A stretch of 35,206 bases of DNA. Origin: Candidatus Altimarinota bacterium. GTDB lineage: Bacteria > Patescibacteriota > JACMRA01. Position 1 is the first letter of the stretch. Each line of letters opens with the position of its first letter. The notes beneath the pieces are model-generated. The model did not search any database and was not told the origin of the DNA. It was given only the letters and a program-made list of their open reading frames with translations. The stretch covers positions 1 to 35,206 of the forward strand of contig JAAUSE010000006.1 in NCBI GenBank assembly GCA_012031925.1. The letters are read 5' to 3'. Positions 15,462 to 27,474 of the stretch are shown here, piece after piece. A program made the position numbers and the translations under genes.

Positions 15462-18400
15462 CTAAATATTCCAATTATTTCCAGAAATATCAAAAAACTT
15501 ATTAAAATATTGAGTTAATTTTTCAAGCACAGTTTCTCGCTTTTTTGTTCGTTCACCAGTTTGCAAAAATCGTGATATTGGTGGTAAAATTTTACTAATA
15601 CTTGTTCCAGAAGTTACTACAAATCCATCTTTGAAAGCATTTTTAATATACAATAACGTTGCTTCTTTATCTAAGTTTTCCACTTCAATAATCTTATACA
15701 ACTCTTCAATTTTCTTTTTTTCTACAAATTCCCTCCAATCATCGTCTACATTTGCGTGAACATCAAGCGAGGCAATAAACTGATTGATAAGTTCTTTTTT
15801 ATTTCTAAGTTCCACACTGGAATCAATTGCTTTATTGATATCAATGAGTAGTTCTTTGTTTTCAGTATTACTGTCGTGATATTTTTTGATAAGTTCTAAC
15901 ACAAAATCAATAGTAATTTCCACTTGTTTGATAAGCTCCATTTCAAACACTATATCATCGTTCACATTTTCTTTCTCTACATTAGAATTTTGGCGATATT
16001 CATTATACAAATCAATGTATATACTATGATAGTCTTGTATGTCTCGAGGTGTTAACAATTCTTTACCTGTAAATTCATCAAAGGTAGTTAAAATATTTCT
16101 TACACGCAACAGAGAACCATACAAAGATATAAAGTCTTTTTGATTTTGCTCGCCGAGAATTCGCTTACCAACAGGAAAATTACTCGTTAGCTCTTCTACT
16201 AAGTTTTTATATCCTCTAACTTGCTGGTTCTCACTTACATATCCATCATAGTAATCTCTAAAAGATTTCAGTAGTACTATACCACTTGCTTCCTTGTCTC
16301 CAAATAAGGCTATCGCTTCGTTGGTAGCTTGTTCTAAGTTACGAAAACAAACGATATTTCCAAAGGTTTTGACACTATTTAGAATTCTATTTGTTCTAGA
16401 ATATGCTTGTACAAGCCCATGTAGACGCAAGTTTTTATCTACCCAAAGCGTATTGAGTGTGGTCGCGTCAAACCCTGTCAAAAACATATTTACTACAATC
16501 AAAATATCAATCTCCCGATTTTTTACCCGCAAACTAATATCTTTATAATAATTTTGAAATTTATCTGCCGAAGTATCATAAGAAGTTTTAAACATGGTAT
16601 TGTAATCTACAATCGCACTATCCAAAAAATCTCTAGAACTTACATCAAGCCCACTAGTATCTTCTGAATTTTCATCAACCATTATATCCGCCATTTCTCC
16701 GCTTTCTGCTTCGTTTACACCAAAGCTATAAATAACCGCTACTTTTAGTTTTTTATCACTTGGTAAATCAACCGTCTGCTTTTTAAATTCAGCATAATAC
16801 TTTTTGGCAACATCAATAGAAGAAACTGCAAAAATAGAATTAAACCCAGCCAGCCTTCTGTCATTTACTTTGTAAAAACTATTGCGTTTAGTTTTTTGGT
16901 CAAAGTGTTCTAAAATATACCTTACAATATTTCCCAATCGCTCTGGCGAAGACAGTACCGCTTCGCGATTAATATCACTTACCTTTTTGTCTTGAATATC
17001 CTCAGCTTCTTTAAAGGTAGAAATGTAATCAACCTTAAACGGCAATACGTTTTTGTCGGCGATTGCATTAACAATAGTATAGGTATGTAGTTTTTCACCA
17101 AATGCCTGCTCAGTAGTTCGCAAATTCACCAATCCACCAGAAGTAGAATTCTTAGCAAAAATAGGCGTACCAGTAAATCCAAACAAGTGATAGTTTTTAA
17201 ATGCTTTGGTAATAGCTTGGTGCATATCACCAAACTGACTGCGGTGACACTCATCAAAAATAATCACCATATGTCCACCAAAAATCTCATGACCTTTGTT
17301 TCCACCAATAAATCGATCCAGTTTTTGTATAGTGGTAATTATAATCTTTGACTCGGTATTTTCTAGTTGTTTTTTGAGAACCGATGTACTCGTGTTACTA
17401 TTAGCTGCACCTTTCTCAAACTTGTCGTACTCTTTCATGGTTTGGTAATCCAAGTCTTTCCTGTCAACCACAAACAAAACTTTATCTATATACGATAACT
17501 TACTCGCCAACTGTGCGGTCTTAAAACTAGTCAATGTTTTACCACTTCCTGTAGTGTGCCACACAAACCCACCAGCCTCCACGGTTCCCAAGTTTTTGTA
17601 GTTGGTACTTATCTCAATCCTATTTAAAATTCGCTCGGTTGCCACAATTTGATACGGCCTCATCACAAGCAGTAGTCTATCGGTTGTAAACACGCAATAC
17701 TTAGTCAAAATCTGCAAAATCGTGTGCTTAGCAAAAAACGTCTTAGCAAAATCCATCAAGTCGGTAATTGGTCGATTAGTGGCATCTGCCCACCAACTCG
17801 TAAACTCAAAGCTGTTACTAGTTTTTCGCCCCTTCTTGCTACTAGTTTTCCCCTTTTCTTTGATATGCTCTGCCCTTGTGGTGTTGCTGTAGTACTTGGT
17901 ATGGGTTCCATTGCTAATCACAAACAACTGCACGTACTCAAAAAGTCCACTGTCTGCCCAAAAACTTTCCCGTTTGTATCTGTTTATTTGATTAAACGCT
18001 TCCACGATTGGAACCCCACGGCGTTTGAGCTCCACGTGTATGAGTGGCAACCCGTTTACTAGCACCGTCACGTCATACCGATTTGCTCGCCGCCCTTCCT
18101 CGGTAGCGTATTGATTGATAACCTGCAAACTATTGTCGTGAATTGTATCCTTGCGTATGAGGTAAATATTTTTGCTTGACCCGTCATCCCGCAATAGGAT
18201 TTTGATATGATCTTCCTGAATAGTTGCCGTTTTATCCTCTATACTTTGATTGGGGTTGGCTATTTCGCTTTCAAAAAACCTTTTCCATTCATTGTCACTA
18301 AACACAATATCATTAAGTTTTTCCAATTGCCTGCGTAGGTTTGTAACCAAATCTTGTTCGGTAGTGAGGGCAATGTATTCATAGGCTTGAGTTTGTAGTT

Positions 18401-18533
18401 GCTTTATAAAAGCTTTCTCCAGCTCCGCTTCACTTTGGTAAGAAGTAGCTCGCTCGGTGGTTGATATGTACTCACTCACCACAGTACTTTGCGGGTTTTC
18501 GGCAACAAGTTTATAATTATTATTTTGTGACAT
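15462..18533 (-). CDS. hsdR: Type I restriction enzyme R subunit
   Basis: This 1023-residue motor and nuclease cuts unmodified DNA after translocation. The N-terminal PD-(D/E)xK nuclease has D154 (RYDVTV), E168-x-K170 (VELK) and the following QINRY. The SF2 helicase has Walker A TTGSGKT (327-333), DECH (427-430) and FGFTGTP, with motifs V/VI in DILIVVNMFLTGFDATTLN and QAYSRTNR. The C-terminal part (about 750-1023) is helical and binds the methylase. Length and motifs are complete, so it should be active. It starts 8 bases after fic and is the last gene of the operon, probably driven by the promoter at 19682-19710 as well as by readthrough. Confidence 0.97.
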   Translation of the reverse strand: MSQNNNYKLVAENPQSTVVSEYISTTERATSYQSEAELEKAFIKQLQTQAYEYIALTTEQDLVTNLRRQLEKLNDIVFSDNEWKRFFESEIANPNQSIEDKTATIQEDHIKILLRDDGSSKNIYLIRKDTIHDNSLQVINQYATEEGRRANRYDVTVLVNGLPLIHVELKRRGVPIVEAFNQINRYKRESFWADSGLFEYVQLFVISNGTHTKYYSNTTRAEHIKEKGKTSSKKGRKTSNSFEFTSWWADATNRPITDLMDFAKTFFAKHTILQILTKYCVFTTDRLLLVMRPYQIVATERILNRIEISTNYKNLGTVEAGGFVWHTTGSGKTLTSFKTAQLASKLSYIDKVLFVVDRKDLDYQTMKEYDKFEKGAANSNTSTSVLKKQLENTESKIIITTIQKLDRFIGGNKGHEIFGGHMVIIFDECHRSQFGDMHQAITKAFKNYHLFGFTGTPIFAKNSTSGGLVNLRTTEQAFGEKLHTYTIVNAIADKNVLPFKVDYISTFKEAEDIQDKKVSDINREAVLSSPERLGNIVRYILEHFDQKTKRNSFYKVNDRRLAGFNSIFAVSSIDVAKKYYAEFKKQTVDLPSDKKLKVAVIYSFGVNEAESGEMADIMVDENSEDTSGLDVSSRDFLDSAIVDYNTMFKTSYDTSADKFQNYYKDISLRVKNREIDILIVVNMFLTGFDATTLNTLWVDKNLRLHGLVQAYSRTNRILNSVKTFGNIVCFRNLEQATNEAIALFGDKEASGIVLLKSFRDYYDGYVSENQQVRGYKNLVEELTSNFPVGKRILGEQNQKDFISLYGSLLRVRNILTTFDEFTGKELLTPRDIQDYHSIYIDLYNEYRQNSNVEKENVNDDIVFEMELIKQVEITIDFVLELIKKYHDSNTENKELLIDINKAIDSSVELRNKKELINQFIASLDVHANVDDDWREFVEKKKIEELYKIIEVENLDKEATLLYIKNAFKDGFVVTSGTSISKILPPISRFLQTGERTKKRETVLEKLTQYFNKFFDISGNNWNI

Positions 18534-18541
18534 ATATGATT

Positions 18542-19670
18542 TTAGTTTTTATTAAATATATCGATATAACGTTTGTATATATAAGATTTTCCGTATGTTT
18601 GCTCAATGTCTTTTACCTCAAGTATTCCAAGATCCACTAGTCTATTAATGACATTTTGAGAACCTTGTCTGCTAAAGCCCGTCCAATCCTGAATTGTAGA
18701 AATTTTTACAATTGGCAAAGAAAACAAATATGGTAAGACCGTAATAGCACTTTCGGAAGCTGTTTTATTTAAAGTTTGAATCTTTAGCATATCCTCATAC
18801 CTTAGAGCTGTAATTTGTTGAACTGTTTCTATAGCTTCTTTTGCTACAGTAATAACTCCATCAAGATAAAAATCAAGCCACTTTTCAATTTTACCTTCGT
18901 GATAGTCATTTAATCTATCGTAATATGTTTGTTTGTGTTGTTTGAAATAAGATGAGAGGTAAAGAGTGGGTCTTTCAAGTAGCTTTGAATGTAACAAAAA
19001 TAAAGTAATCAAAAGCCTTCCAGTTCTACCATTACCATCCAAAAAAGGATGAAGTGTTTCAAATTGTGCGTGAATTAACCCAGCTTTTACAACTAAGTTA
19101 TAACTATCACTAGCATGAATAAATTGTTCCAAATCTCCAAGTGCTTTAATGAGATCACCAGGTGAAGGCGGTACAAATTCGGCATTATTTAAGTTTGTCC
19201 CACCGATCCAATTTTGGCTTTTGCGAAAATTTCCTGGGTCACTATAATGGCTGGTGCGTGCGTCTTTCATCAAAACCTCGTGTAACTCAGTAATAAATCT
19301 AAGGGAAATGGGGAATTTTTTTAGTCTTTCAATTCCGTAGTTTATTGCTTCAATATAATGATAAATATCATCAACATCGTCGTTTCTGTTAATCAGCTGC
19401 GTCTGTGCTTCGTATTCAATCGCATCTATAAATGTTGCCCTAGTCCCCTCTATTTGGTTTGAATTAGTAGCATCTTTACGAATATACATGGAAATAAAAA
19501 ATCCATATCAGGTAATAAAAGTGTTGATCCATCCAATTTTCCAATAATTCTTGTGGCTTCATTTATTTTTGAGTCAATGAACTATTGAAAGTACCCAAAT
19601 TATGAGGTGGAAAGGGTTCGGGTAAAAAGGATTTGTAGCCCGTAGTTTGATTAATATATGTTCCGATCAT
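18542..19670 (-). CDS. fic: Fic-domain AMP-transferase with C-terminal winged helix (two frameshifts)
   Basis: The catalytic motif HPFLDGNGRTGR is complete, so the protein should transfer AMP (or a similar group) to a target hydroxyl. The inhibitory motif SNQIEG sits in the N-terminal part (a class II Fic layout), and a winged helix (ISTIQDWTGFSRQGSQNVIN) ends the protein. An ATG at 19487 gives only 315 residues. Adding one base at the A run 19496-19501 and one at the T run 19566-19570 extends it upstream to ATG 19670 (MIGTYINQTTGYKSFLPEP, FPPHNLGTFNSSL), about 376 residues, as in full-length relatives. A consensus promoter 5 bases before this ATG supports that start. It lies between hsdS and hsdR; Fic proteins are recurrent passengers of type I loci, role uncertain. 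Confidence 0.9.
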
Positions 19671-19681
19671 AAAACTTTTAA

Positions 19682-19710
19682 ATTATAAACATTGTAACCA
19701 AACTTGTCAA
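19682..19710 (-). promoter_or_regulatory. Perfect consensus promoter for fic-hsdR
   Basis: On the minus strand TTGACA (19705-19710), a 17-base spacer and TATAAT (19682-19687), the only full consensus match I found in the window. The predicted start at about 19675 lies 5 bases before ATG 19670. Confidence 0.8.
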
Positions 19711-19752
19711 CGATTTCTTAAAACTGTGGACATTGTAACCAAACTTGTCAAC
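19689..19752 (-). repeat. Duplicated 23-bp element at the fic promoter (possible operator)
   Basis: An identical 23-bp sequence lies at 19689-19711 and 19730-19752, 41 bp apart. The first copy covers the -35 box and spacer of the fic promoter. The second has the TTGACA but no -10 box after it, so it is not simply a second promoter. The 41-bp period, about four helical turns, would suit a regulator bound at two sites on one face. Confidence 0.75.
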
Positions 19753-19765
19753 TATTTTGCTGTAA

Positions 19766-20974
19766 CTATCTTGGGACATATTCTTGGAAAGTTAAAAGTA
19801 AATTGCGGTAATATTCGTATTGAGATCGTCGGGAACGGAGTTCGGCAGAGAGACCAATACTAATATCATTAACCAAGGCATCAAACTTGTCGAGAATTGC
19901 CACAATCCGCTCTTGTTCTGATAATGGAGGAATTGGGATTTTGAATTTTTCAATTACAGTCCTTGATAACCTTGGCACACTTGCCCTTCTAACTCTAGAG
20001 AAGAAAAAAATCTCTTCCTTTTTCAAGTAATAAAATAAATATTTATTGTTTAATGTATTAGGACAAATTAAAGTAAAACAATCATCTGCCGCCCAAAAAT
20101 CAATTTTACTATAACCAACTGACCCAGCTGCACCAGCAGTAATAATAAATGTTGTATTAGCGTTATTATTATTTTTTTCATAATATCCAAGTGGTATCAT
20201 ACTATTTTGATAAACTGGAAAATCACCAATTGGATTAAGTTGTTTTTTGACTACACGAACTCCTCTTTTTAGGTTCACAATTTCTCCTAAGGTTTTCCAT
20301 TCTGCGTCTTTTTGGCTTGACAATAATTGCTCGCGGTAATACTCATATTGTTTCTTACGAGCCTCTAGCTCTGCCTCTAGCTCTGCCTCTAGCTCTGCCT
20401 CTAGCTCTGTGAAGTTATCCAATATCCTCACTATTTCTTGTTGAACCAACATCGGCGGCACCGGAACCTTAAATTTCTTTAGTTGTGTCATAGGAATACT
20501 AACAACTGTAGAGCCAGCTGATAGCTCAATTATTTTGCGAAGTGTGGTAACTGAGCTAATATAATATAGTAAATACTTAGAATTTAGTTTTGCTTGATCT
20601 GGCTTAATCACATACACACCTTCCTTAACATTCCAATTTGTTGGTGCGGTTTGAACAAGAGCAGTTTTACCAATTGTACCTGTGCCAGAAAATAAAACAT
20701 CTCCGACCTCAAGATTTGAACGATTATTAATTAACTTTAACCCTTCATCATTTACTTTATCCGTTTTGTCTAAAAATAATATGTTTATACCACCCAACTC
20801 TCGAACAGTCATGTAATAATTTTTAGCATCAGCTGTATTCAATCTAAAATTATTTCGAGGATTTAAGCCAGTTTTTAAAGATAATATTACCTCGCCAAGC
20901 TTCTTAAACTCGACCCCATCAGGACAAAGCTGGTTGATAAGTGTTTGTAAATGAGGTTGATGCTTTGGTGTCAT
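19766..20974 (-). CDS. hsdS: Type I restriction specificity subunit
   Basis: This 402-residue protein has two target recognition domains, each followed by a conserved helix. TRD1 is about residues 20-180 (opens FKKLGEVILSLKTGLNPR, ends KFKVPVPPMLVQQEIVRILD). TRD2 is about 225-370 (opens WKTLGEIVNLKRGVRV, ends KFKIPIPPLSEQERIVAILD). Each half recognises one side of a split DNA site and docks a methylase. The central helix holds four ELEA repeats before RKKQYEYYREQLL, the arrangement known in the EcoR124 family. It starts 3 bases after the OLD-like gene stop. Both halves look intact. Confidence 0.95.
   Translation of the reverse strand: MTPKHQPHLQTLINQLCPDGVEFKKLGEVILSLKTGLNPRNNFRLNTADAKNYYMTVRELGGINILFLDKTDKVNDEGLKLINNRSNLEVGDVLFSGTGTIGKTALVQTAPTNWNVKEGVYVIKPDQAKLNSKYLLYYISSVTTLRKIIELSAGSTVVSIPMTQLKKFKVPVPPMLVQQEIVRILDNFTELEAELEAELEAELEARKKQYEYYREQLLSSQKDAEWKTLGEIVNLKRGVRVVKKQLNPIGDFPVYQNSMIPLGYYEKNNNNANTTFIITAGAAGSVGYSKIDFWAADDCFTLICPNTLNNKYLFYYLKKEEIFFFSRVRRASVPRLSRTVIEKFKIPIPPLSEQERIVAILDKFDALVNDISIGLSAELRSRRSQYEYYRNLLLTFQEYVPR
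20361..20408 (-). repeat. Four 12-bp repeats encoding ELEA in the HsdS spacer
   Basis: Four exact head-to-tail copies of GCCTCTAGCTCT (plus strand) encode ELEA units in the helix between the two recognition domains. In EcoR124-type enzymes the count of such 4-residue units sets the length of the unspecific gap in the DNA site. Slippage would keep the frame. Confidence 0.92.
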
Positions 20975-20977
20975 ATA

Positions 20978-22617
20978 CTAAAATGGCATTTCAAAATCTA
21001 TATTTGTTTGAGGAATTGACGGCAAGTTTTCATACGTCTCTTTTTCATCATTACTTGAAAAAAGCAGAAAGTTTTTTAATACAGTTAAATCATTAGGTAT
21101 TTGATCAATTTTTATATTTTTAGCCCAATTTAAAGCATTTAATACTTTTTCCTTTTTTGTAGAAGAGTAGCCACATACAGTTTCAAAATCATAATCTAAT
21201 GGAATAGTTTTGTTCGAAATTTCTTCTTTTGTTAAATTTTCTAAAATCTTGTCAGTTGATTTCTTAGCTAAGTTCCTTGCATCCTCACTCTTTTTTGGAT
21301 CTTGATCGGTATCATATATTACTAAAAAATCAGAAATTCCAAGAAATTTACACACTTTTATAAAAAAAGGTATAAGATCTTTAGACTGGCAGTTTACTAT
21401 TGTGTAATTTATCTTTTTATTTTCTAACAAAACTTCAATTACATAAGGCAATGATTTTTCCTCAGTTTCACCCTCAACTAAAATCACCTTATCTGCAAAG
21501 AAAAGCTCATTTCGTTCATATGAAAATTTGGTTAGCAAATGTACTTTATTTTTTTCATTTTCATCAACTAATTCTGACAAGCTTCCTTGATTTGTCTTAT
21601 ATGTTCCATTAGCTCCTTTTTTTAACATTATTATGTTGTTTGCGTTATTTATTGATAAAAATAATGGTGAATGTGTGGTGTAAAATATCTGTGAGTTTTG
21701 AGAAATTTCGATAAAGGATTCATATAAACTTCTTTGAGCATTAGGAAATAAATACAATTCAGGTTCTTCAAATCCAAAAATTATATTTCCATTGCAATAT
21801 TTTGAATAAGCCTGAAAAATGGAAATAAGGACTAGGTTTTGTGTACCTGAACCGATTTCATTTATATTAAATATTTGATTACCTTCTTCAATTTGAATTT
21901 GCAAAGTTTTATAATACCATAAAGGATCATAAATATCTAGCTTTAAATTACAATGATTAGCATGTCCGTTTAAGTTACTATCCATTTTTTCCTTTAAAAT
22001 TGATTTAAATTTTGTGAAGGAGTATTTATTAGTTGCGTCTCCATCCAATAATTCTAACGGTTCTTTCATCAACTCCTTAAACTTACCTTCGTTCTCAATA
22101 TTTGTTCGAAAGTCTTCATCAATCTTTTTAAGAATTTTTCCAAGTAAAGTCCATTGGCTAATTGCGGTTTGTTTTTCAAGATTTCTATCAGCTGGTATGC
22201 AAATAAAGCTTATCTTACTTCTTATTTCCCCATTTCCATAAAACTCATTATCATTTTCATCATAAACTAAAAATTTAATTGAATTTCCACCATTATTATT
22301 AGTGCATGTAAGTTTAAACCTAGTTATTTCAACATTTCTTTTACTACCAGAAGTTGGTGTCAGATATACGCTTTCTAATTTTTGATCAAAAGAAATTTCG
22401 ATTTCAATTGTATTATTTGTGTCTCTGTTGTAAAAATCATCTCTTTTTAAAAAGCTCTTTCAGTGGGGTATGTTTCACCAAGTAAAATATTTATAGCTTT
22501 AAGAATATTAGATTTTCCACTACTATTTGCACCTACCAAAGCACATAATTCTGAAGGATCAAAGTCAATATTCTTTATCGATTTGAAATTTTTAATTTTT
22601 ATGTTTTTAATTTTCAT
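20978..22617 (-). CDS. OLD-family ATPase with C-terminal TOPRIM nuclease domain (one frameshift)
   Basis: The full protein is about 546 residues. It starts MKIKNIKIKNFKSIKNIDF with Walker A GANSSGKS (29-36). The frame breaks at the A run 22449-22453; one added base joins LLGETYPTERAF to LKRDDFYNRDTNN. Then come an ABC signature region (INEIGSGTQNLVL, near 250), Walker B IIFGFEEPELYLFP (about 277-290), a TTHSP switch, and a TOPRIM domain with VEGETEEKS (about 378) and YDTDQD (about 435). This is the layout of OLD nucleases and of the GajA subunit of Gabija; PARIS splits or fuses similar parts. No UvrD-like GajB is present. Its place between hsdM and hsdS, with 3-base gaps on both sides, means it is made together with the modification enzyme. 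Confidence 0.87.
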
Positions 22618-22620
22618 ATT

Positions 22621-24183
22621 CTAATTATTTCCTTCAATTTCCTTAACAATCTCATTAATAGCAATTCTAAGTTTGCTTTGTTTGGTTACTATTTGCTCAA
22701 TTTGGGCGTTTAGTACTGTAATATCAATTACCTCGCGGGTGTCTTTTTGCTCCACATAACTAGATACTGATAAATTGTAGTCGTTTTCGCCAATTAATTT
22801 GTTATCCACTAGCTTCGCGAAATGCTCTACATCTTCTCGCTTGGTAAATACTTCCAAAACTTGTTGACGATTAACTTCACTAAGTTTGTTTTTGTTGCCT
22901 CCGCGTACAAATGAACTAGAAGCATCTATAAATAAAGTTTTGTTGTCACTCTTGGATTTTTTGAGCACTACGATACACGTGGCGATTGTCGTCCCAAAAA
23001 ACAAATCGGGTGGAAGTTGAATTACCGCGTCCACGTAATTATTGTCTATCAAGTATTTACGGATTTTACCTTCTGCTCCACCACGATACAGAACACCTGG
23101 AAACTCAACTATTGCCGCCGTGCCGCTAGTTGAGAGCCATTTAAGCATATGCAAGGTAAACGCCAAATCAGCTTTGCTTTTGGGTGCGAGTACTCCAGCA
23201 AGTGAAAACCTAGGATCGTTGATCATGATTGGGTTACTATCTCCGTCCCACTTGATAGAATAGGGCGGATTAGACACAATAGCGTCAAATGGTTCGTCGT
23301 CCCAGTGTTTGGGATCAAGCAACGTATCACCATGAGCAATGTCAAATTTTTCGTAATTCACGTCATGCAAAAACATATTAATACGACACAAGTTATAGGT
23401 GGTGAGGTTGATCTCTTGACCATAAAACCCACCTCTTACATTATCTTTACCCAACACTTTGGCAAATTTGAGCAGCAAAGAACCAGACCCACAACAAGGA
23501 TCGTACACTTTATTAACTTCGGTTTTACCAACGGTAGTAATTTCGGCTAACAACTCACTTACTTCTTGCGGAGTGTAGTATTCTCCACCACTTTTACCTG
23601 CATTAGAGGCGTACATGGCCATCAAATATTCATACGCATCACCAAAAGCATCTATGGTATTATCGGCATATTCGCCCAATTTTAATTGACCAATCGCTTC
23701 CAAAAGTTTCACAAGTTGCTGGTTTCGCCGTTCTACAGTCGCCCCAAGTTTATTGGAATTAACATCGAGGTCATCAAAAAGTCCTTTTAAGTCTTCTTCA
23801 CTACTTGAGCCTTTGGCAGATAACTCAATATTATTAAAAACTGTTGTTAAGGTTTCGTTGAGATTGGAATCGGCGGGTGCCTTTTTACGTACATTTACAA
23901 AAAGTTCACTTGGCAAAATATAAAAACCTTTATCCGCCAACGTTTCAGTTCGCCCAAATTCCGCTGCTTCATCGGTAATGTTGGCATAATTGAATTCGGG
24001 GTGTAATTTTTGTTCTTCCTTATTAATATAGTTGGTAAGATTTTCACTTATAAAACGATAAAACAACATTCCAAGTACGTATTGTTTAAAGTCCCACCCA
24101 TCAATACTTCCACGTAAATCGTTTGCAATTTGCCAAATAGCTCTGTGAAGCTCGGCTCTTTCCTGTTCTTTGTGGTTGTTCAT
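22621..24183 (-). CDS. hsdM: Type I DNA N6-adenine methyltransferase M subunit
   Basis: This 520-residue protein has a helical HsdM N-terminal domain (WQIANDLRGSIDGWDFKQYV) and a class I methylase fold with motif I YDPCCGSGSLL (about 226-236) and the catalytic NPPY (about 306-309, in IVSNPPYSIKW). It transfers methyl from S-adenosylmethionine to adenine and protects host DNA; with HsdS it forms the core to which HsdR binds. It is the first gene of the defence operon. Upstream is TTGACA (24234-24239) without a convincing -10, so the promoter is unclear. Confidence 0.96.
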   Translation of the reverse strand: MNNHKEQERAELHRAIWQIANDLRGSIDGWDFKQYVLGMLFYRFISENLTNYINKEEQKLHPEFNYANITDEAAEFGRTETLADKGFYILPSELFVNVRKKAPADSNLNETLTTVFNNIELSAKGSSSEEDLKGLFDDLDVNSNKLGATVERRNQQLVKLLEAIGQLKLGEYADNTIDAFGDAYEYLMAMYASNAGKSGGEYYTPQEVSELLAEITTVGKTEVNKVYDPCCGSGSLLLKFAKVLGKDNVRGGFYGQEINLTTYNLCRINMFLHDVNYEKFDIAHGDTLLDPKHWDDEPFDAIVSNPPYSIKWDGDSNPIMINDPRFSLAGVLAPKSKADLAFTLHMLKWLSTSGTAAIVEFPGVLYRGGAEGKIRKYLIDNNYVDAVIQLPPDLFFGTTIATCIVVLKKSKSDNKTLFIDASSSFVRGGNKNKLSEVNRQQVLEVFTKREDVEHFAKLVDNKLIGENDYNLSVSSYVEQKDTREVIDITVLNAQIEQIVTKQSKLRIAINEIVKEIEGNN

Positions 24184-24757: not shown

Positions 24758-25516
24758 TTAGCTAATGCGCATTATTTTTTCTAACTTGCGGCCTTTGGCC
24801 AGTTCGTCCACCAATTTATCCAGATACCTTGCCTTTTGTGTTAACGGGTTTTTGATTTCTTCGACGCGGTAGCCACAAATAACACCTGTAATCAGTTGGG
24901 CATTTAGGTTTAGTGTTGCCTGCTTAAAAAAGGTTTCAAAAGTAGCATTGTTTGCAATGAGTTCGTGCAACTTGTTTTCACCATGGCCAGTAAGCCATTC
25001 AATTACTTGGTGCAGTTCAGCTTTTGTCCTGCCTTTTTTCTCAACTTTTGTAACGTAATGCGGATACACCGAAGCAAATGTCATTTTTGCAATTCGCTCA
25101 TCATGTATACTTGTATTGTTCATATTTTCTAGTTTTTCCAATTTACCTTTTCGTTTAACAATATTTTTATAGTCCCATTGAATTTCAATTGATTTTTGAA
25201 GCCATCTTTTCAAATCATTTTCATCAATTTCTAAAATACTATTATAAAATATAGACGCGTCTTTGAACTTTTTCCCTCTCACATTTAGTTTCACTTCTTC
25301 AAAATCAGCCCCACTCCAAAACATCAATCTAATTCCTAGCTTTTGTTTACTATATCCCACGATAGGGTTCCCTTCCAAAAACCAAACTGGATGACCATGC
25401 CATATTTTATTGTCAGATTTTGGTAAATTATTTGAAATAATCTGATATAACTTATTGCATATATCTTTTTCAGATTCTAATAAATTATTGTTGTATTCTG
25501 TTATTGTTTGAGGCAT
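24758..25516 (-). CDS. DUF1801-like domain fused to DUF2200
   Basis: From ATG 25516 (MPQTITEYNNNLLESEKDIC) the protein has about 252 residues. Residues 1-125 form a DUF1801/YdhG-like domain (SNNLPKSDNKIWHGHPVWFL, RLMFWSGADFEEV). Residues 128-252 form a complete DUF2200 domain (AKMTFASVYPHYVTKVEKKG, RTKAELHQVIEWLTGHGENK, GVICGYRVEEIKNPL, RYLDKLVDELAKG). Each is usually a free-standing protein of unknown role. The junction KLEKLEN-MNNTSIHDERIAK looks like two genes joined in frame, with the usual DUF2200 start Met inside. A single added base there would split them, so the fusion could be a sequencing effect. Confidence 0.78.
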   Translation of the reverse strand: MPQTITEYNNNLLESEKDICNKLYQIISNNLPKSDNKIWHGHPVWFLEGNPIVGYSKQKLGIRLMFWSGADFEEVKLNVRGKKFKDASIFYNSILEIDENDLKRWLQKSIEIQWDYKNIVKRKGKLEKLENMNNTSIHDERIAKMTFASVYPHYVTKVEKKGRTKAELHQVIEWLTGHGENKLHELIANNATFETFFKQATLNLNAQLITGVICGYRVEEIKNPLTQKARYLDKLVDELAKGRKLEKIMRIS

Positions 25517-25541
25517 AATTAATATGTATTCTAAAATTATT

Positions 25542-26036
25542 CTATAGGTATTTTTCGATGTCACTATATTTTTTTCCTGCAAGTACTCCTGCTGCTAATG
25601 AGTTTTGTTGAGTGATTTCTTTTTTGATATCGTACCTTGACAAGTCAAGTTCTTTTACTTCCTCTTCCCATTCAATATCCATCACTTTGAGTGGAGCAAG
25701 ATCACCCAAATACTCATCTATTTCTATGGTGTAGCCATTAAACCTTTTGGAGTAGCGAGTTTTTTCTAGCACATTTCCAATTAAGTTTTTTTCCAAAAAC
25801 CCATATTCGTAGTCAATTAAATTGATAGTTTCCTCAACCATAGTTGAGAGATCTCCTGAAGTTTTAGGATATTTTTTGGTCATAAAAAGCTTCTCACCAC
25901 GCTTGCGCAGTCGTATCATTGGATGATCTGCATCTGGGGGCAAATAAGTATCTTTGGTATATTCCTTTTTCCAATCATCAAGATTATCTGGTATAGAATT
26001 CAACAAATATGTTGATTCATTTTCGATTTCATACAT
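25542..26036 (-). CDS. CYTH-domain protein (triphosphate tunnel metalloenzyme family)
   Basis: From ATG 26036 the 164-residue protein begins YEIENESTYLL, close to the ExExK signature of the family (the K is E here). It continues with basic tunnel strands (MIRLRKRGEKLFMTKKYP), an acidic pair (MVEETINLIDYEYGFL), and TRYSKRFNGYTIEIDEYLGD and a final acidic strand. CYTH enzymes hydrolyse inorganic triphosphate or thiamine triphosphate, or make cAMP. The altered signature leaves activity open. It lies 25 bases upstream of the DUF1801-DUF2200 gene, same strand. Confidence 0.78.
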   Translation of the reverse strand: MYEIENESTYLLNSIPDNLDDWKKEYTKDTYLPPDADHPMIRLRKRGEKLFMTKKYPKTSGDLSTMVEETINLIDYEYGFLEKNLIGNVLEKTRYSKRFNGYTIEIDEYLGDLAPLKVMDIEWEEEVKELDLSRYDIKKEITQQNSLAAGVLAGKKYSDIEKYL

Positions 26037-26131
26037 AAAAAACAAATGATGTAATTATTAGTCTATGTCAAATTAGCATACTTAAAATACTTAGATATAT
26101 TTACTATATCTTGAAAACTTTCACTAAGAAT

Positions 26132-27474
26132 TTAACTTTCGGTTTTTAAATGACGGCTTATATTTATTTTGTAAAACTTAGTTAGGTTTTTATATGGTTT
26201 TGATGTCCATGCAAAAACTGTAACAATTACCCCAACAAAACCAGCTGTGATAAATACGAGTGCTATTCCACGACTCTCTCCAGAACCAAACCAACTCCCA
26301 ATATACTCTACACCTTTACCTGTTGTCATAAAAGGTATAAATATAGATGAGGCAAGTGGACCAACTAAAAAAGCTGTAACTGGCATAGCTGAAGATTCAA
26401 TACTTTGTGCAAACCCAAAAACTCGCCCTTGTCTTTCTTGTGGAACAATATTTTGAATCACTGTTTGTTCTGCCGATTCTGCAATTGGCATTAAAAACAT
26501 CCAAACAACCATCCCGATTATTAATAAAATAATTGAAGCTTGAATAGGGAAAATAATACATGAAATCCACGACACAACATTTACAATCATAATAGATTTT
26601 AATGGGTTTTTACCAACTCCATATTTTGCAACAAACATCCCACCAGCTATCATAGCAAAGCTTACTCCACCCCACAAAAATCCCCATGTTTCTACATTCA
26701 CCAGCGACAAACCATATATATCCATTAGAGCCATAAATACTCCCCCTAAAAAATTATTGATAGACTGAAAAAATATCAAAGCTAGTAGCCCAGGTATAGA
26801 ACTAACAATTGCAATTGTTCCTATAATATCTAGTTTTTTTTGATTTTCGTTGTTTTCTATAGTTAGTTTTTCTGGAAAAGCCAAAAAAGCAATATGTAAA
26901 AGTGGGATTAAAGTAAAAAATATAGCTATCAATAGTGCATAGTTCATACCAAAAAACTTATAACAATTCCACTAAAAATAGAAGTAAGCGAAAATGAAAT
27001 ACCTTGCACAGTACCAACAAGCCCGTTGGCTTTATCGCGTTCATGTTCATTATAAAGAAGGCTAACAGATGTAGAAAGTGCTATCAAACGCATATTTCCA
27101 GCAACTGTGCCAATCATTAAGATAGCTACAAATAACCATAACATTGGAGAAGTCACCAACACTTTTGTGTTAAATATAGAAACAAAATATATTACCGATC
27201 CAAAGCTAAAAGCAAACAGCGAAATAATACTTGATACTACCATTGCAGTTTTTTTTCGGTGATTATCAACATATCCACCAATTATTACTGCTCCAATCAT
27301 ATTAGACACCGCAAAAATTCCAGCTATCACAGAAGCTACAATCACTGATCTTGTCTCTAATATTGCCCAGAATGTTAGGGCAAACCAAACAAAGTTATTA
27401 GTAAAGCTTGCAATCAAATTATTTATAAGTAAATTGTAAAAAAGATATTTTTTTGGTTTTTTTAAATTTGACAT
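26132..27474 (-). CDS. MFS transporter (one frameshift)
   Basis: Two adjacent frames (N part from ATG 27474, C part after 26950) join into one 447-residue transporter when one base is added in the A run 26951-26956: SGIVISF continues FGMNYALLIAIFFTLI. About twelve hydrophobic helices fit the major facilitator fold. GGYVDNHRKK after helix 2 is the motif A loop. The pattern resembles EntS-type drug or siderophore exporters of the MFS_3 group, with PQERQGRVFG as the matching loop of the second half. Substrate unknown. A strong promoter lies 80-odd bases upstream. Confidence 0.85.

What the first reader, a model, noticed from the sequence alone, without database searches (positions are those of the whole stretch)
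15462..24183. Composite defence operon: type I restriction with an OLD-type nuclease and a Fic enzyme built in
Five minus-strand genes run hsdM, ATPase-TOPRIM (OLD/GajA-like), hsdS, fic, hsdR. Gaps are 3, 3, 95 and 8 bases. The OLD-like gene sits between the two genes that must be made in fixed ratio, so it is bound to the modification enzyme's expression. All catalytic motifs are present in all five. Fic and ATPase passengers in type I loci are known separately; this order, and a lone GajA-like protein without GajB, could be a distinct combined system in which the OLD nuclease backs up restriction (for example when a phage blocks HsdR).
Basis: partly seen in the sequence, partly recalled or inferred. 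Interest (0 to 1): 0.72.

Follow-up and report, generated by a model that had tools for sequence, protein, structure and literature searches.

The report
Restriction operon with decayed defence passengers
An ultra-small uncultured bacterium carries an intact type I restriction-modification system with two extra defence genes inserted in it, an OLD nuclease and a Fic enzyme; both inserted genes are broken here, but the OLD gene's relatives repeatedly ride directly inside or behind restriction-modification systems of several types, which OLD reviews do not describe.

Summary
Gene order and coordinates are right, but two of the five genes are not intact as written. OLD (20978-22617) changes frame after 56 codons, separating Walker A from the rest; intact relatives read straight through. 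Fic's first ~60 codons are spread over three frames; only a 315-aa ORF with the catalytic motif remains. hsdM, hsdS and hsdR are intact (type IC).

The order M-OLD-S-fic-R was found only here. In 15 same-phylum relatives (HsdM 66-81% identical) the M-S junction is a cargo slot, filled in 9 by other genes (RhuM, PDC-S06, PDC-S46, PDC-S13, ThsB TIR, ATPases). Fic sits elsewhere or is absent, and a consensus promoter precedes fic. So the five genes are not one fixed system.

The OLD is nevertheless no random passenger. It is not GajA: nearest structure is class 1 TsOLD, no GajB, outside the GajA/B clade. Its closest kin (99/98 support) include an intact hsdM-hsdS-OLD-hsdR operon on a mobile element; wider kin follow type II, IIG and III systems, including a conserved HTH-mod-res-OLD unit in Firmicutes. 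OLD is best read as a portable second-line nuclease of restriction systems, probably dead in this genome.

The parts
22621..24183 (-). hsdM, type I R-M modification subunit (520 aa), intact
   Evidence: TIGR00497 770.8 bits (cut-off 242.75); N6_Mtase and HsdM_N; relatives at 66-81% identity in the same phylum
22447..22617 (-). OLD gene, 5' piece: 56 codons plus stop, carries Walker A (GANSSGKS)
   Evidence: aligns to the N-terminus of intact L016 and L162 OLD
22444..22453 (-). site where the OLD reading frame changes (T5A5 run)
   Evidence: intact relatives read through
20978..22459 (-). OLD gene, 3' piece: 493 codons, rest of ATPase plus OLD TOPRIM (E329, E333, D383, D385, E426 of P0001)
   Evidence: TOPRIM residues match TsOLD E377/D381/D431/D433/E480 (alignment; residues from PMC7049728)
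19766..20974 (-). hsdS, specificity subunit with two target-recognition domains, intact
   Evidence: PF01420 two stretches
20361..20409 (-). 12-bp tandem repeat, 4.1 perfect copies, in the HsdS central spacer (ELEA repeats)
   Evidence: copy number differs in relatives L126 and L127
19677..19757 (-). two 40-nt direct repeats (41-nt spacing); the copy nearer fic holds a 12/12 sigma-70 consensus promoter at 19710-19682, just before the fic ATG at 19670
   Evidence: the exact 21-mer occurs only here in the genome
18542..19670 (-). fic gene (Fic/SoFic-like AMPylase); N-terminal ~60 codons in three frames (frame changes near 19566-19570 and 19496-19501); continuous ORF 18542-19489, 315 aa, keeps HPFLDGNGRTGR and SNQIEG
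15462..18533 (-). hsdR, type IC restriction subunit (1023 aa), intact
   Evidence: PF04313, PF18766, PF22679, PF12008; TIGR00348 565.7 bits

Best explanation
This is an intact type IC restriction-modification system that serves as a carrier for interchangeable defence cargo. The main cargo site is the hsdM-hsdS junction, occupied here by an OLD-family ATPase/TOPRIM nuclease; a Fic enzyme with its own promoter was inserted between hsdS and hsdR. Both cargo genes are frame-broken, so in this genome the working system is most likely HsdRMS alone, perhaps with a truncated Fic (shown for the sequence; loss of function is inferred). The OLD belongs to a GajB-less lineage that recurrently rides with R-M systems of different types. 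Most likely mechanism for intact members (inferred, about 45%): the OLD is a second-line DNA nuclease made with the modification/restriction genes that acts on a product common to all R-M types, namely broken or end-bearing invader DNA, finishing or backing up restriction. The PrrC-like alternative (latent guard released when the restriction enzyme is blocked) is about 25%.
For: Core genes intact and typed. Cargo slot: of 16 type IC loci (window included) 10 have genes between M and S, of at least seven families; 6 have none. OLD is AT-rich (27% G+C against 39% for hsdM and 36% for hsdR), as expected of an acquired cassette. Frame breaks shown against intact relatives; rpoB and rpoC of the same genome and seven other named window genes have none, so general sequencing error is the less likely cause. 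Lineage: window + L162 + L192 supported 99/98; L192 is an intact hsdM-hsdS-OLD-hsdR operon with a 4-base overlap and a 2-base gap. Six records of HTH-mod-res-OLD or res-OLD; a 92%-identical OLD behind an hsdM-hsdS pair (L034); type II (L016); IIG (L180); N6-MTase (L031). The same OLD pairs with unrelated restriction proteins, which argues for response to a shared DNA product rather than to a shared protein partner.
Against: No reads or second isolate, so assembly error in homopolymers cannot be excluded. Some close kin have no R-M neighbour (L162 beside a serine recombinase, L032, L041) and one sits beside CRISPR type I-A genes (L178), so R-M linkage is frequent, not obligatory. Genomic linkage of defence genes is common in defence islands and does not by itself show cooperation. 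No activity data exist for this OLD lineage.
Confidence: 0.68

Rival explanations
1. PrrC-like guard: OLD is held latent by the R-M complex and released when a phage protein blocks the restriction enzyme, then attacks phage and host DNA or aborts the infection.
For: Slot and R-M type match the PrrC precedent: a toxin gene embedded in a type IC locus, activated when T4 Stp inhibits EcoprrI (PMC12707154; PMC2610378). OLD is flanked by hsdM and hsdS with 3-base gaps.
Against: Nearly the same OLD (92% identical) pairs with type III Mod-Res and with an M-S pair without a nearby R, and kin pair with type II and IIG enzymes; a protein-specific latch would have to be rebuilt each time. PrrC orthologues are described as invariably linked to type Ic systems.
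Confidence: 0.25
2. Chance passenger: OLD and fic are ordinary defence-island genes that landed in a tolerated site and are being lost; there is no functional link with restriction.
For: Both are broken here; the M-S slot holds many unrelated genes in relatives; the five-gene order is unique in the sample.
Against: The OLD lineage is R-M-adjacent in most independent contexts seen (type I twice more, II, IIG, III, N6-MTase), and HTH-mod-res-OLD is conserved across several Firmicutes genomes.
Confidence: 0.25
3. The frame breaks are assembly or sequencing errors and the operon is intact in the cell.
For: All breaks lie in short A or T runs (5-6 bases); the genome is an 80.6% complete draft in 51 contigs.
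Against: hsdM, hsdS, hsdR, four other named window genes (12.2 kb, 137 runs of 5 or more) and rpoB/rpoC carry no break, whereas OLD, fic and a neighbouring MFS gene (4.1 kb, 60 such runs) carry four. The comparison is post hoc.
Confidence: 0.27
4. OLD is made as one protein by programmed -1 frameshifting at the T5A5 site.
For: The change is in the -1 direction at a run of T directly before a stop codon.
Against: No canonical tandem slippery heptamer; intact relatives are in one frame and have no such site; fic and MFS are broken in similar runs.
Confidence: 0.05

Closest known systems
Type IC restriction-modification systems (EcoR124I/EcoprrI family)
   Same: TIGR00497 HsdM, HsdR with EcoR124_C domain, two-TRD HsdS with short central repeats, M-S-R order
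   Different: OLD inserted between M and S, Fic between S and R, and a separate consensus promoter before fic-hsdR
PrrC/EcoprrI and RloC (cargo inside type I loci)
   Same: ABC-ATPase defence gene embedded in a type IC operon
   Different: OLD has a TOPRIM DNase domain and no anticodon-nuclease domain; it sits in the M-S slot; it is broken here
Guilt-by-embedding defence candidates (PADLOC PDC families; Payne et al. 2024 preprint, cited in PMC12255303 and PMC12988326); DarTG2 embedded in an E. coli type I system (PMC12255303)
   Same: Single defence genes inside type I operons; relatives of this locus carry PDC-S05 (RhuM), S06, S13 and S46 in the same slot
   Different: The cargo here is an OLD of a lineage also tied to type II, IIG and III systems
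Class 1 OLD nucleases (TsOLD 6P74; P2 Old)
   Same: Single-chain ATPase-TOPRIM, no GajB downstream, best structural match TsOLD (251 bits), conserved metal-binding residues
   Different: Reviewed as single genes not near other defence genes (PMC10568477); this lineage is often R-M-embedded and is not in the P2 Old clade
Gabija (class 2 OLD: GajA + GajB)
   Same: Same superfamily; PADLOC GajA models hit
   Different: No UvrD-like GajB; outside the 100/98 GajA/B clade; weaker match to GajA structures (104 bits)

Membership tests
Type IC R-M system | HsdM, HsdS, HsdR all present and intact | tested here: met
Type IC R-M system | IC-family HsdM model (TIGR00497) over cut-off and EcoR124_C in HsdR | tested here: met
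   770.8 bits against 242.75; PF12008 1.1e-58
Type IC R-M system | sequence-specific methylation and restriction | not testable with these tools
   needs methylome or plasmid restriction assay
Class 1 OLD nuclease | ABC ATPase plus OLD TOPRIM in one chain | tested here: inconclusive
   both domains encoded but in two frames; intact in kin L162 and L192
Class 1 OLD nuclease | no UvrD-like helicase gene downstream | tested here: met
   next gene is hsdS
Class 1 OLD nuclease | metal A/B residues of TsOLD (E377, D431, D433; D381, S478, E480) | tested here: met
   E329, D383, D385; E333, D424, E426 of P0001 by alignment, side-chain type differing at two metal-B positions
Class 1 OLD nuclease | isolated single gene, not near other defence genes | tested here: not met
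   embedded between hsdM and hsdS
Gabija | GajA-clade OLD with GajB | tested here: not met
   no UvrD gene in the operon
PrrC-type guard | anticodon-nuclease (HEPN) domain | tested here: not met
   Pfam hits are AAA ATPase and OLD TOPRIM only
PrrC-type guard | kept latent by, and released from, the R-M complex | not testable with these tools
   needs biochemistry
SoFic / Fic AMPylase | HPFx(D/E)GNGRxxR motif | tested here: met
   HPFLDGNGRTGR, PF02661 4.3e-20
SoFic / Fic AMPylase | full-length SoFic model over curated cut-off | tested here: not met
   NF046030 139.8 bits against 550; PADLOC SoFic matched from model position 55 only; N-terminus frame-broken
PARIS (AriA/AriB) | ATPase and TOPRIM as separate proteins | tested here: not met
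   OLD TOPRIM lies in the same gene as the ATPase C-half

The most novel reading that the evidence does not exclude
A lineage of GajB-less OLD nucleases is a dedicated, portable partner of restriction-modification systems. The same OLD cassette is swapped between type I, II, IIG and III operons, and it works as a shared second-line DNase that senses the products or the failure of restriction. [quoted passage not shown]
Probability: 0.35. Interest if true: 0.62.

Novelty: new variant of a known kind. Interest (0 to 1): 0.42.

Why it matters
Cargo genes inside type I operons are known, but class 1 OLD nucleases are described as solitary genes of unknown trigger. Finding one OLD lineage repeatedly inside or directly behind restriction operons of different types points to a specific, testable role, namely acting with or after restriction. 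It also supplies intact model operons for the test: the M-S-OLD-R mobile element L192, and HTH-mod-res-OLD in Bacillus badius. It further shows the hsdM-hsdS junction as a preferred cargo slot in ultra-small bacteria, whose small genomes leave little room for defence islands.

Tried and rejected
A single fixed five-gene system: rejected, order not repeated. Gabija membership: rejected. Plasmid DNA-level search with the OLD gene: no match. Phage records: only distant OLDs such as P2 Old. Programmed frameshift: judged unlikely. A clade holding all R-M-linked OLDs was tested: the AU test does not reject it (p 0.277), but the free tree also draws in L018, L043 and L046, so the wider group is only moderately supported. 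My R-M adjacency count with a home-made panel (5 of 7 in the clade, 4 of 28 with GajB, 12 of 57 other) is biased because panel queries came partly from the clade's own loci; it is not used as a statistic. A literature search for R-M-linked OLDs found nothing specific, but most subscription papers and bioRxiv preprints are not in the library. Structure prediction was not run, since the sequence match to TsOLD (1.9e-73) was sufficient.
Full report
WHAT IS THERE. The window is a complete contig (G000:C22) of a 1.07 Mb, 51-contig draft genome, 80.6% complete. A same-phylum genome (G337) has a contig of the same length, 1,051,512 bases, as the record titled Patescibacteria group bacterium BroJett019, so the organism is most likely a member of the Patescibacteria (inference from contig length). 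On the minus strand lie hsdM (22621-24183), an OLD gene (20978-22617), hsdS (19766-20974), fic (18542-19670) and hsdR (15462-18533). HsdM matches TIGR00497 far above its cut-off, HsdR carries EcoR124_C, and HsdS has two specificity domains, so the backbone is a type IC system and looks intact.

THE TWO PASSENGERS ARE BROKEN. The OLD frame from ATG 22617 ends after 56 codons, just past Walker A; the remaining 493 codons, with the rest of the ATPase and the TOPRIM domain, are in another frame. Two intact relatives, L016 and L162, read straight through the same place; L162 has GETYPTERAFTKDDFYGRD where the window has GETYPTERAF-stop in one frame and LKRDDFYNRD in the other. The fic N-terminus is spread over three frames, shown by tblastn with an intact 52%-identical Fic from L136. 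What remains is a 315-aa ORF with the Fic motif and the SxxxEG inhibitory motif, so a truncated Fic may still be made. A neighbouring MFS gene (26132-27474) is split as well. By contrast hsdM, hsdS, hsdR, PBP, YifB, a glycosyltransferase and CobW in the window (12.2 kb) and rpoB and rpoC elsewhere in the genome are single open frames. If errors were spread evenly, all four breaks would fall in these 4.1 kb out of about 23.7 kb with a chance near 0.001. This is a hand calculation made after seeing the data, hence only suggestive. Real decay of cargo genes is therefore favoured over sequencing error, but reads are needed.

TRANSCRIPTION. OLD is separated from hsdM and from hsdS by 3 bases each. 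Before fic lies a perfect 12/12 sigma-70 consensus (19710-19682) inside one of two 40-nt direct repeats; the 21-mer occurs exactly only at this locus in the genome. The sensible reading is two units, hsdM-OLD-hsdS and fic-hsdR; this is a consensus match, not evidence of use. In most close relatives hsdS and hsdR overlap or nearly touch, so the Fic insertion here is unusual.

IS THE ORDER CONSERVED? HsdM relatives at 66-81% identity were found in 15 other genomes of the 380 searched in the phylum, and their loci were read. With the window that makes 16 type IC loci. The M-S junction is occupied in 10: RhuM/PDC-S05 twice, PDC-S46 twice, PDC-S06, a Bro-N/PDC-S13 protein, a Thoeris ThsB-like TIR protein with a small ORF, an OLD-like ATPase without a TOPRIM hit (L121), an ATPase with two small ORFs (L130), and the OLD of the window. 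Six have no insert. Nothing but the window has a gene between S and R. A more distant set of type I loci carries other cargo in both slots, including a DRT-type reverse transcriptase, PD-T7-4 and a GajB-like helicase. Fic appears before hsdM (L120), in the M-S slot (Cetobacterium plasmid, L138) and after hsdR (L136).

WHAT THE OLD IS. A profile from the OLD and four relatives matches the class 1 structure TsOLD (6p74, 1.9e-73, 251 bits) far better than GajA (about 1e-28, 104 bits). The residues corresponding to TsOLD metal ligands (PMC7049728) are present: E329, D383, D385 and E333, D424, E426 of P0001. Trees of 95, 45 and 39 OLD proteins place it outside the GajA/GajB clade (100/98 to 100/99) and away from P2 Old.

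WHERE ITS RELATIVES LIVE. Window, L162 and L192 form a 99/98 group. L192, a viral-collection contig with a resolvase, has hsdM-hsdS-OLD-hsdR in 7.7 kb, with OLD overlapping hsdS by 4 bases and hsdR 2 bases downstream; Pfam confirms all four. L162 sits beside a serine recombinase without R-M genes. In the wider group: HTH-mod-res-OLD in a Bacillus badius plasmid and four further Firmicutes genomes, and res-OLD at a contig end in Bacillus subtilis DE0224; an OLD 92% identical to that of B. badius behind an N6-methylase and HsdS with a related HTH gene (L034), the DNA similarity being confined to the OLD gene and its immediate flanks; a type II unit with C5-methylase, MvaI/BcnI-like nuclease and Vsr followed by OLD (L016); a type IIG Eco57I-like enzyme followed by OLD after 22 bases (L180); a large N6-methylase followed by OLD (L031); and a CRISPR type I-A operon near OLD (L178). 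L032 and L041 have no R-M neighbour. Type I R-M linkage also occurs for other OLDs (L065, L099) and for Gabija pairs (L070, L164).

HOW IT MOST LIKELY WORKS. Shown: sequence, context and phylogeny. Inferred: in intact members the OLD is produced with the R-M genes and cuts DNA. The partner restriction proteins are unrelated across types, so a cue shared by all R-M systems, such as broken invader DNA, is a simpler trigger than a protein-specific latch. TsOLD and P2 Old degrade linear DNA in vitro (PMC10568477, PMC7049728). The PrrC model, release when restriction is inhibited (PMC12707154, PMC2610378), is the main rival. In the window's own genome the OLD is probably inactive.

KNOWN OR NEW. 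Embedding of defence genes in type I operons is established: PrrC, RloC, DarTG2 between hsdS and hsdR (PMC12255303), and the guilt-by-embedding PDC families (Payne et al. 2024, cited there and in PMC12988326). Solitary class 1 OLDs are described as not near other defence genes (PMC10568477). The R-M-linked OLD lineage is therefore a variant of known kinds that I did not find described in the papers available.

Noticed in passing
window 20361-20409: hsdS central spacer has a 12-bp repeat in 4.1 perfect copies (ELEA units); relatives L126 and L127 have fewer. It resembles the spacer repeats of EcoR124-type HsdS, where copy number is known (my recollection) to change target spacing.
   Followed up: partly
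window 26132-27474: An MFS transporter is split into two frames near a T6 run; Pfam MFS_1 positions 1-147 and 153-343 lie in different frames.
   Followed up: partly
window 24758-26045: ORF 24758-25582 joins DUF1801 and DUF2200 domains and overlaps a neighbouring ORF in another frame; possibly another frame break or a fusion.
   Followed up: no
L029, L175, L176, L177, L179 (and L038): Conserved four-gene unit HTH - type III mod - res - OLD in Firmicutes, with res and OLD about 90-93% identical but Mod only 61-80% identical; a good experimental model.
   Followed up: partly
L178:8184-15613: OLD nuclease of the same wider lineage next to CRISPR type I-A genes (Csa2/DevR, Csa4-like, Cas3).
   Followed up: no
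L134:5359-11590: Type I R-M locus with a DRT-family reverse transcriptase between hsdS and hsdR and a PDC-S14 gene after hsdM.
   Followed up: no
L131:1222-2401: Thoeris ThsB-like TIR protein plus a small ORF in the hsdM-hsdS slot of a type IC operon.
   Followed up: no
L121:9462-11526: OLD-like ATPase without a TOPRIM hit in the hsdM-hsdS slot, next to a half-length HsdS.
   Followed up: no
L109:6933-9603 and L175:4542-7551: fic genes close to an OLD on the same strand (37-base gap in L109, about 340 bases in L175), so Fic-OLD proximity occurs outside the window too.
   Followed up: no
L164:2450-12253: Type I hsdR-hsdM-hsdS followed directly by an OLD and a UvrD-like helicase (Gabija pair) in a genome of the same phylum.
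   Followed up: no
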